A stretch of 64,000 nt of DNA. Origin: Blastomyces gilchristii SLH14081. Its lineage: Eukaryota; Ascomycota; Eurotiomycetes; Onygenales; Ajellomycetaceae. A program made the translations under genes and the position numbers. Of this stretch, positions 44,572-46,303 are shown piece by piece. The stretch is from contig NW_003101676.1 in the NCBI RefSeq assembly GCF_000003855.2, positions 2,552,796 to 2,616,795 of the forward strand. The letters are read 5' to 3'. Below the pieces are notes generated by a model. It was not told the DNA's origin. It did no database searches and worked only from the letters and a program-made list of their open reading frames with translations. Within the stretch, counting starts at the first letter, position 1. Each line of letters begins with the position of its first letter.

Positions 44572-46303
44572 TCAAAACTCAAGATCTGCAAGGGATTTGA
44601 GAGCTGCAAGCCGCTCTTGCAACAACATCACATACATCTTCAATTCCTCTATCACTCTGTATACAACATTAATGTCATTTATTGCAAGATTGACTGAAAT
44701 GCCAATATAGAAATGTGTATGTGTATGTGTAGAAAAATTGAAGAAGAGCATGAGACTCACAGGACCAGAAGCCAGGGTAGAAAGAACAGAGGTGAAAGAA
44801 ACAGAAGAAGGAGAAGACACAGAACTGAATAAACAGCAGTGAGAGTCACTCAGAGCTGAACACTTACAACCTGATATACACACAATCTTTCTCACAGAGA
44901 AGAGAGAGAAAGTGATGAAAGAAGCTTGAAGACAGAAGAGAATAGTCTCTGCAGTATTGTCATCTTTAATTAGAATGACCTCTGACATCAGAGCAACTAA
45001 GAATCATTGTTAATATATGAAAATTGAAAAATCAGGGATGAGAACAGTTACTGAATAAACACTCACTGACCTTAGAGTTGTACATGCAATTACAACACAC
45101 ATGAGGCTTCTCAGAAAGAGAGAGAGAGACACAGGAAAATGCAGAAAGCAGAACACAGCATGTGAACAGCTCATTCTCATAACAACATCTCAGACAGAGT
45201 GTATGAGCCTCACATCTGCAGGTGTAAAAGAGTATAACATTCACATTTCTAATCTTAAAAACACAGATATTCTTCACCTGCATCATGAAGTCAGATGACA
45301 GATGCCAGAGAATAGACTGATACAGATCTATTATTCTGAAGAAATTCATCAGAGCAGACATACTCATAATATTGAATTTAACAGTCATGAAAAGTTTCTT
45401 GATATCTGTGAATATCACAACTTCATGCATAGTAAAACTCATAATAATTTTCTCTAAGAACAGGAAAATCAGCATCAGAAAGAAAAGATGAAAAGAAAAA
45501 GACTTACAATCTTGACACTGTTGAAGAGAGAAATAATTCTCTGAAATGAATGAACAATTCTCTTATCATGAATATTTAAAATGAACATAATAATCAGTGT
45601 TCACAACTGAGCTTCAGATAGTCATGTTATACACAGTCTTTGTACAATAAATTGTTCTAGAAGTTGACAGGAAGGGTGAAAGCATACACACTGATAAACA
45701 TGATTCATTAAGTCTACATAATATCTCCTTGAAACAGGGAGAGCTGATAATGAAAGCAGAGACAGCAAAATCAGAGAGAGCAGGAGTAGTGAGAGTGAGA
45801 GTCACAGGAACAGGAACAGAGATAGCAGAAGCGGGAGAATCAGACACAGAGACAGGTGTAGAAGATTGAGAGAGAACAGCAGAGAAAGAAACAGAGAGAG
45901 CAGAGAGAGACACAGAAGACTCAGTCATATATGACATAGACAATTCCTTTATTATCACATTCTTCAAGTTCTCAATCAATGATTCAACATCAGGTTCACT
46001 ATCATCAGTGAATATGAATCTGTCAACATGTGAAGATTCTACATGAATAAAAACAAACATCAGCATCTGTGTTTATGCAAAATCATGTCAGAAAACATGA
46101 TCAGAAACTCACTGAGAAGGAAACAGAAACAGTCAAGAGTATACAAGAAGATGAAGAGAGTGTGTTATTCATGATAATACATTCTGATAATTGTTAGAAG
46201 ATAAACAAGTTCTGATCACATTTCACAATATGTTACACTTACTGTTAATGAACTGCTCAGTATGAGCACTACAATAATACTTATTATGAGAATAAGAGGC
46301 CAT
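44572..46303 (-). pseudogene. Antisense intron-bearing gene inside gypsy element 1, cysteine-rich
   Basis: Between pol and the 3' LTR the minus strand carries a multi-exon frame also found in element 2 (51785-53450, plus). Probable start is ATG at 46303, giving MASYSHNKYYCSAHTEQFI, before an apparent 5' splice site GTAAGTGTAA. Exons inferred: a Ser/Thr/Pro-rich part (about 45614-46060, ending TIYCTKTVYNMTI), a part with YTCRCEAHTLCLRC and KPHVCCNCMYNSK (about 45060-45440), and a last part from SEVILIKDDNTAET to LKSLADLEF (stop near 44572). Introns have GTAAGT/TTAG-type borders at the same places in both copies. The Cys pattern suggests a zinc-binding module but matches no family I can name. 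Some stops are present, so this copy may be dead; exon joins are provisional. Confidence 0.6.

What the first reader, a model, noticed from the sequence alone, without database searches (positions are those of the whole stretch)
44572..46303. Gypsy family carrying a conserved antisense gene with spliceosomal introns
Elements 1 and 2 both carry, between integrase and the 3' LTR and opposite to gag-pol, the same multi-exon frame with a cysteine-rich part (CEAHTLCLRC / CETCTSCLRC and CCNCMYNSK). Frame, exon order and Cys positions are shared although copies differ by many transitions. Antisense orientation explains how introns could survive: they are not spliceable in the genomic RNA that is reverse transcribed. 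Antisense extra ORFs are known in some plant gypsy elements, but I know no fungal family with this one. It could be an element-encoded regulator or a captured host gene.
Basis: partly seen in the sequence, partly recalled or inferred. Interest (0 to 1): 0.87.

Follow-up and report, generated by a model that had tools for sequence, protein, structure and literature searches.

The report
Spliced antisense gene in fungal retrotransposons
A very abundant retrotransposon of the fungus Blastomyces carries, backwards between its integrase gene and its end repeat, a real intron-containing gene that was kept under selection and is related to a single-copy gene of the fungus itself; reversed genes in such elements are known, but I found no report of this gene or of its link to a host gene.

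Summary
In detail: 44572-46303 is exactly ATG to stop (minus strand) of a four-exon gene lying antisense to gag-pol between integrase and 3' LTR of an 8.3-kb Gypsy element of Blastomyces. In 39 copies, shared indels in exons are all multiples of three (6 of 6; noncoding 7 of 25). Shared transversions fall 4/2/15 on codon positions 1/2/3; private ones 18/18/16. So the frame was under purifying selection in the spreading lineages and decays after insertion. Of 279 in-frame stops, 275 fit C-to-T/G-to-A decay. 20 of 20 copies picked by integrase carry exon 3. Two long versions are annotated as unknown proteins (BDBG_17024, 450 aa; BDCG_06430 of B. dermatitidis, 463 aa). The genome holds a single-copy DUF3716 gene with the same cysteine spacing, a similar C-terminus and phase-1 introns around the domain: the antisense gene is most likely a captured host gene, less likely the donor of the host gene. 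Best guess of function: an element-encoded nuclear regulator (inferred). Fungal precedent exists (Botrytis brtn), so it is a new variant, not a new kind. Transcription is untested.

The parts
38511..38686 (+). 5' LTR of element 1 (176 bp)
   Evidence: 88.6% identical to the 3' LTR, 20 transitions, 0 transversions; flanks AGTG/AGTG
41534..41851 (+). reverse transcriptase piece of pol (RVT_1)
   Evidence: PF00078, 45.6 bits, cut-off 29.6
42557..42949 (+). integrase zinc-binding piece of pol (Integrase_H2C2), after RT: Gypsy order
   Evidence: PF17921, 46.3 bits, cut-off 25.5
46243..46303 (-). antisense gene exon 1, ATG start
   Evidence: ATG in 36 of 39 copies, donor GTAAGT in 39 of 39; BDBG_17024 and BDCG_06430 start here
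46039..46242 (-). intron 1 (GTAAGT..TAG)
   Evidence: acceptor AG in 38 of 39; frame-breaking shared indels inside
45508..46038 (-). exon 2 (Ser/Pro/Ala-rich part, then a conserved part); in element 1 broken by in-frame stops
   Evidence: its end agrees with BDCG_06430
45454..45507 (-). intron 2 (54 nt, GTAAGT..TTCTTAG), phase 1
   Evidence: acceptor AG in 39 of 39; donor GT in only 16 of 39 (AT, G-to-A, in 23)
45052..45453 (-). exon 3, DUF3716 domain with six cysteines; open in element 1
44997..45051 (-). intron 3 (55 nt, GTAACT..TTCTTAG), phase 1; the public models start this intron further upstream
   Evidence: acceptor AG in 37 of 39, donor GT in 27 of 39, the annotated upstream donor GT in 35 of 39
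44572..44996 (-). exon 4, C-terminal helix and stop; open in element 1
   Evidence: stop codon TGA or TAA in 39 of 39; helix predicted in P0007
46611..46786 (+). 3' LTR of element 1
51785..53490 (+). the same antisense gene in element 2 (element on the minus strand); exon 1 51785-51845, exon 2 52045-52557, exon 3 52612-53013, exon 4 53069-53490; exon 1 open, exons 2-4 with in-frame stops

Best explanation
An accessory gene of a Blastomyces Gypsy family, encoded antisense to gag-pol between integrase and 3' LTR, with four exons and about 467 codons. It encodes a protein with an N-terminal Ser/Pro/Ala-rich part, a DUF3716 six-cysteine (probably zinc-binding) domain and a C-terminal helix that could pair as a coiled coil. 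Shown here: the frame, its selective constraint in the spreading lineages, its presence in all sampled copies, DUF3716 membership, and a single-copy host paralogue with matching domain order and introns. Inferred: an ancestor of the element took up a genomic, intron-bearing copy of a host DUF3716 gene in reverse orientation; its introns persist because they are not spliceable in the sense RNA that is reverse transcribed; the gene is transcribed from a promoter in or beside the 3' LTR; its product is a nuclear, nucleic-acid-binding regulator helping the element to be expressed or to escape host silencing, in the manner proposed for other antisense retroelement genes.
For: Gene exists and was selected: shared indels 6 of 6 multiples of three in exons against 7 of 25 outside (Fisher p 0.0023); shared transversions 4/2/15 by codon position (binomial p 0.0004) against private ones 18/18/16; shared ones at positions 1+2 0.6% of sites against 3.3% in noncoding. 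275 of 279 in-frame stops lie at codons where at least one other copy has a Trp, Gln or Arg codon (a lenient criterion). Present in 20 of 20 integrase-picked copies. Annotated versions in two species: P0006/BDBG_17024 and P0007/BDCG_06430. DUF3716: 34.3 bits, cut-off 22. Host relation: GC-rich gene found once by DNA search, best DUF3716 score of the genome, 56.6 bits; DUF3716 part 33.8% identity to L034 exon 3, shuffle z 11.5; C-terminal part of P0007 shuffle z 8.6, 0 of 2000 shuffles each; phase-1 introns on both sides of the DUF3716 exon, which starts 72 and 70 residues before the VL..TRG motif; Cys spacing C-x2-C-x9-C..C-x2-C-x8-C in both.
Against: No transcript data. Donor 2 is GT in only 16 and donor 3 in 27 of 39 copies (the rest AT, as decay would give), while the donor that public models use for intron 3 is GT in 35 of 39. 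Direction of transfer is not shown. Intron 3 of the host gene lies about a dozen codons further from the last Cys than in the element. BLAST E-values are for two subject sequences only; with P0007 instead of L034 they are 2e-4 (DUF3716) and 0.034 (C-terminus). Profile-profile comparison of the DUF3716 parts is weak (hhalign probability 21%, E 0.001). The window's own exon 3 stretch gave no Pfam match at E<=1 and 20 of 39 copies matched DUF3716 at E<=0.1. AlphaFold gave no confident fold of the domain (mean pLDDT 44.5). No direct evidence for any function.
Confidence: 0.72

Rival explanations
1. The direction is the reverse: the DUF3716 gene arose as an element gene and the single-copy host gene is a domesticated descendant.
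For: The host gene was found once, in GC-rich DNA; other dispersed DUF3716-like families exist in this genome, so the domain may travel with mobile elements.
Against: The host copy scores far better against the family profile (56.6 against 34 bits); DUF3716 is a Pfam family annotated from many fungi (recalled, not from a call).
Confidence: 0.15
2. The antisense transcript works mainly as RNA: it pairs with the genomic RNA, makes double-stranded RNA and tunes silencing; the protein is secondary.
For: Discussed for antisense ORFs in plants (PMC7264820, passages); antisense placement makes overlap inevitable if the unit is transcribed.
Against: Constraint is on codons: third-position bias and length-conserving indels; an RNA role alone predicts neither.
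Confidence: 0.1
3. A chance or fossil open frame, kept alike only because copies are young.
For: None of the 39 copies has all exons open.
Against: Shared and private changes differ in codon position (4/2/15 against 18/18/16) and shared indels keep frame in exons only; Pfam domain and host paralogue.
Confidence: 0.03

Closest known systems
brtn, antisense gene of Boty-like (BcGypsy1) Gypsy elements of Botrytis cinerea (Zhao 2011, title only; passages in PMC8365987, PMC4227169)
   Same: extra gene antisense to gag-pol in a fungal Gypsy family
   Different: Boty gag-pol is reported with a CHROMO domain (PMC4227169 passage), none was found in the decayed pieces scanned here; BRTN sequence not available, so homology untested
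Antisense aORF of plant Retand/RIRE2/Grande elements, TRP28 domain (PMC11963269, PMC7264820, passages)
   Same: antisense gene between pol and 3' LTR, conserved in the lineage, proposed regulator
   Different: DUF3716 instead of TRP28; three introns and a single-copy host paralogue here; the word 'intron' was not found in the main text of either paper
DUF3716 (PF12511), domain of unknown function (fungal, as recalled)
   Same: exon 3 and the host gene at C1:270009 exceed the curated cut-off; same cysteine spacing
   Different: here part of a retrotransposon; the term DUF3716 is in 0 papers of the held library
HBZ of HTLV-1 (recalled; also mentioned in PMC11963269)
   Same: spliced antisense gene near the 3' LTR coding for a nuclear regulator
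   Different: no bZIP match here; a virus of people, unrelated protein

Membership tests
Ty3/Gypsy LTR retrotransposon | two LTRs, TG..CA ends, target site duplication | tested here: met
   LTR pairs in 13 elements; 4-bp duplications in 7 of 12 elements whose two LTRs lie in one locus
Ty3/Gypsy LTR retrotransposon | reverse transcriptase before integrase | tested here: met
   RVT_1 at 41534-41851, Integrase_H2C2 at 42557-42949
Ty3/Gypsy LTR retrotransposon | primer binding site and polypurine tract | not tested
   only looked at by eye
DUF3716 (PF12511) | profile score above curated cut-off | tested here: met
   L034 34.3 bits over profile 2-57 of 59; P0007 30.3 bits over 2-31; cut-off 22; 20 of 39 copies match at E<=0.1
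DUF3716 (PF12511) | conserved cysteines | tested here: met
   six positions Cys or Tyr (Cys decayed) in 39 of 39, all six Cys in 15 of 39; same spacing in the host gene
Boty/brtn-type element | antisense gene homologous to BRTN | not testable with these tools
   BRTN sequence not at hand; paper not held
Boty/brtn-type element | chromodomain at the end of pol | tested here: inconclusive
   no chromodomain in 10 open pieces scanned, but pol is decayed
plant Retand type (TRP28) | TRP28 (PF04195) domain in the antisense ORF | tested here: not met
   no such match at E<=1

The most novel reading that the evidence does not exclude
The element captured an intron-bearing host regulatory gene in reverse, kept both its frame and its splicing under selection through many rounds of reverse transcription, and used its product against the host pathway in which the single-copy DUF3716 gene acts; this helped the family swell to a large part of the doubled Blastomyces genome. 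DUF3716 genes may be a recurrent cargo of fungal mobile elements, as further dispersed families in this genome hint.
Probability: 0.3. Interest if true: 0.85.

Novelty: new variant of a known kind. Interest (0 to 1): 0.63.

Why it matters
Antisense accessory genes of LTR retrotransposons are known in plants, retroviruses and Botrytis, but their origin and role stay open; [quoted passage not shown] Here a likely source gene exists as a single copy in the same genome, introns included, and selection on the antisense frame can be separated from decay after insertion. That makes origin and function directly testable. It also warns that some Blastomyces 'hypothetical proteins' (BDBG_17024, BDCG_06430 and fragments; 16 found) are element genes, in genomes of which 47.5-52.1% is Gypsy (PMC11540331, passage).

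Tried and rejected
(2) A 234-nt intron 2 as in annotated BDCG_00872, my first model: the stretch has no indels outside its last 54 nt, fits the frame and its stops are of the decay type, so it was put into exon 2. With that first model the transversion counts were 4/2/11, so the result does not hang on the change; but the boundary was moved after seeing these data. (3) A sense-strand extra gene such as env: each of the three sense frames of exons 2, 3 and 4 has at least two codons that are stops in 30 or more of 39 copies. Against this, in L034 one sense frame over exon 3 is free of stops (147 aa); it uses the same triplets, so its third positions fall on antisense first positions, where only 1 of 5 shared transversions of exon 3 lies. 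(4) That the L071-type DUF3716 copies belong to the Gypsy whose integrase (recognised by eye) lies beside one of them: apart from that locus, only 1 of 28 L071-type places lies within 10 kb of one of the 40 listed relatives of that stretch; only 40 of 672 candidates were listed, so this is left open. Led nowhere: PDB sequence searches, AlphaFold of P0007, distant homologue search with the domain (only the two Blastomyces proteins), literature on DUF3716 and on five locus tags (0 papers).

Limits: the 39 copies are not random: elements 1 and 2 of the window, L010, 21 copies from the 20 loci most similar to element 1, 9 of 10 fetched for longer open frames (L033 dropped, its match was split by an insert), five most similar to L034 by DNA and one by protein. 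L001-L009 repeat other copies and were not counted. Indels within about 10 bases of the region ends were left out. Copies are related, so p values are approximate. First-look candidates were 850, 949, 876, 810 and 801, of which only 40 or 150 were scored; they are not copy numbers.

Full report
What is there. The window is part of a 74.8-Mb genome (contig C7, 2552796-2616795). The named proteins that match the antisense frame are all from Blastomyces (5 of 5, 16 of 16), and the contig that holds BDBG_17024 has the length of our C7, 3179325, so the genome is that of B. gilchristii SLH14081 or an equal assembly. Element 1 is 38511-46786 with 176-bp LTRs; the LTR pair differs by 20 transitions and no transversion, and the flanks are AGTG/AGTG. 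Among 12 elements with both LTRs in one locus, 7 show a 4-bp duplication. No transversion separates the LTRs in 8 of these 12 and in the L034/L047 element (9 of 13); one does in L015 and L024, two in L028, and two or five in L023, where the pairing is ambiguous. RT and integrase pieces lie in Gypsy order. Published work says that Gypsy elements make up about half of these genomes and are GC-poor (PMC11540331 and PMC4595289, passages); for both papers the search listing counts no occurrence of 'antisense'.

Gene model. One copy, L034 (C7:2383100-2386800), keeps CpG and 48% GC over the antisense gene although its pol is decayed. On it, and on the alignment of 39 copies, the gene has four exons of 61, 516, 402 and 425 nt with introns of 200, 54 and 55 nt; 1404 coding nt. 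In 39 copies the ATG is kept in 36, donor 1 GTAAGT in 39, acceptors 1, 2 and 3 in 38, 39 and 37, and a stop codon at the end in 39; donor 2 is GT in 16 and donor 3 in 27, the rest AT. L034 itself has one in-frame stop. It is annotated as BDBG_17024 (450 aa), which agrees with my exons 1 and 2 up to a few codons before the end of exon 2, where it splices round the stop; BDCG_06430 of B. dermatitidis ER-3 (463 aa), an open protein, agrees with intron 2. Both public models use another intron 3 that removes the last cysteines of the domain; its donor is GT in 35 of 39 copies. Only transcripts can decide.

Selection. In the exons all 6 indels shared by two or more copies are multiples of three; outside, 7 of 25 are (Fisher p 0.0023). 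Transversions shared by two or more copies fall 4, 2 and 15 on codon positions 1, 2 and 3 (p 0.0004); those in one copy fall 18, 18 and 16. Shared ones are rarer at positions 1+2 (0.6% of sites) than in noncoding (3.3%); private ones are 3.8% against 5.4%. Transversions were used because decay makes transitions: against L034, C-to-T is 58% in CpC, 54% in CpG, 33% in CpA and 9% in CpT. Of 279 in-frame stops 275 fit that decay. So the spreading lineages were selected for this frame, and inserted copies lose it neutrally. This is what an element-encoded, functional protein predicts. Columns count once, but copies are related, so the p values are approximate.

How general. From 40 integrase hits I took every second of the 39 that are not element 1: 20 of 20 carry exon 3 at the expected place. 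They are the integrase copies closest to element 1, and some, L034 among them, were already in the 39. The family is very large: 150 of 150 scored loci matched exon 3, out of 949 first-look candidates.

What it encodes. Exon 3 matches DUF3716 at 34.3 bits (cut-off 22), profile positions 2-57 of 59; P0007 at 30.3 bits over 2-31. The six cysteines C-x2-C-x9-C..C-x2-C-x8-C are Cys or its decay product Tyr in 39 of 39. Nine other columns that mix Cys, His and Tyr, some with Arg, are all Arg in P0007, so much of the apparent cysteine-richness of decayed copies is arginine decay. Residues 424-459 of P0007 form a predicted helix (mean pLDDT 83-90 over 431-460); the rest of the model is not confident (mean 44.5).

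Host paralogue. The best DUF3716 match of the genome is not the element but C1:270009-270194 (56.6 bits; 38 matches from 150 scored of 189 candidates). It lies in GC-rich, CpG-rich DNA and a DNA search finds it once. Its product shares with the element protein the DUF3716 part (33.8% identity over 68 columns with L034 exon 3, pairwise E 9e-7, shuffle z 11.5; with P0007 E 2e-4) and the C-terminal part (YFKIPPGL..RAIDEL..RLELLE against YIDIPANL..RAVEES..QLAALE; pairwise E 2.8e-5 with L034 exon 4, 0.034 with P0007; shuffle z 8.6 with P0007, 0 of 2000 shuffles). An inferred phase-1 intron precedes the DUF3716 exon in both, 72 and 70 residues before the VL..TRG motif; another phase-1 intron follows the domain in both, at different distance (read by me from the sequence). 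hhalign of the DUF3716 parts alone is weak (probability 21%). Two similar parts in the same order with matching introns are best explained by common descent of the whole gene. A genomic, unspliced origin follows from the introns. Whether host to element or the reverse is not settled; I favour capture.

Mechanism. Shown: frame, constraint, domain, paralogue. Inferred: transcription from a promoter in or near the 3' LTR, splicing, nuclear action, a regulatory effect on the element or on host silencing. Precedents: Botrytis brtn (only title and passages in other papers seen), plant antisense genes with nuclear localisation for Grande GENE23 (PMC7264820, passages), TRP28 in Retand (PMC11963269, passages). 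I found no report of DUF3716 in a retrotransposon: searches 'DUF3716' (0 papers), 'PF12511' and related (1 paper, listing only), antisense plus Gypsy terms, Blastomyces terms, five locus tags; the library lacks most subscription papers.

Noticed in passing
G000:C13:769400-769900 (L071) and 26 further places of 430 bases or more: Another dispersed, decayed DUF3716-like family (30 candidates, all scored); the C13 copy lies 1-2 kb from what looks by eye like a decayed Gypsy integrase on the other strand, but the listed relatives of that stretch mostly do not lie beside L071-type copies, so its carrier is unknown.
   Followed up: partly
G000:C7:2212000-2212500 (L069): A third DUF3716-like sequence with 15 first-look candidates (18 matching pieces) in the genome; GC 0.49.
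   Followed up: partly
window 38500-38899 and 46500-46899 (13 and 4 stretches compared): LTR-containing bins keep CpG (o/e 0.67 and 0.82) while internal bins have 0-0.17: the decay seems to spare the element ends.
   Followed up: no
L034 (G000:C7:2383100-2386800) and L046: Mosaic decay: L034 is spared over about 2.7 kb covering the antisense gene and decayed in pol; L046 is spared only over its first kb.
   Followed up: partly
window 49500-51309: A 1.8-kb repeat with dozens of further copies (mostly 86-90% identity) abuts the end of element 2; on contigs C13 and C21 the same repeat also lies within about 0.6 kb of a copy of the element's 3' part.
   Followed up: no
window 58937-64000: A third copy of the family, cut by the window end, next to element 2 in opposite orientation.
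   Followed up: no
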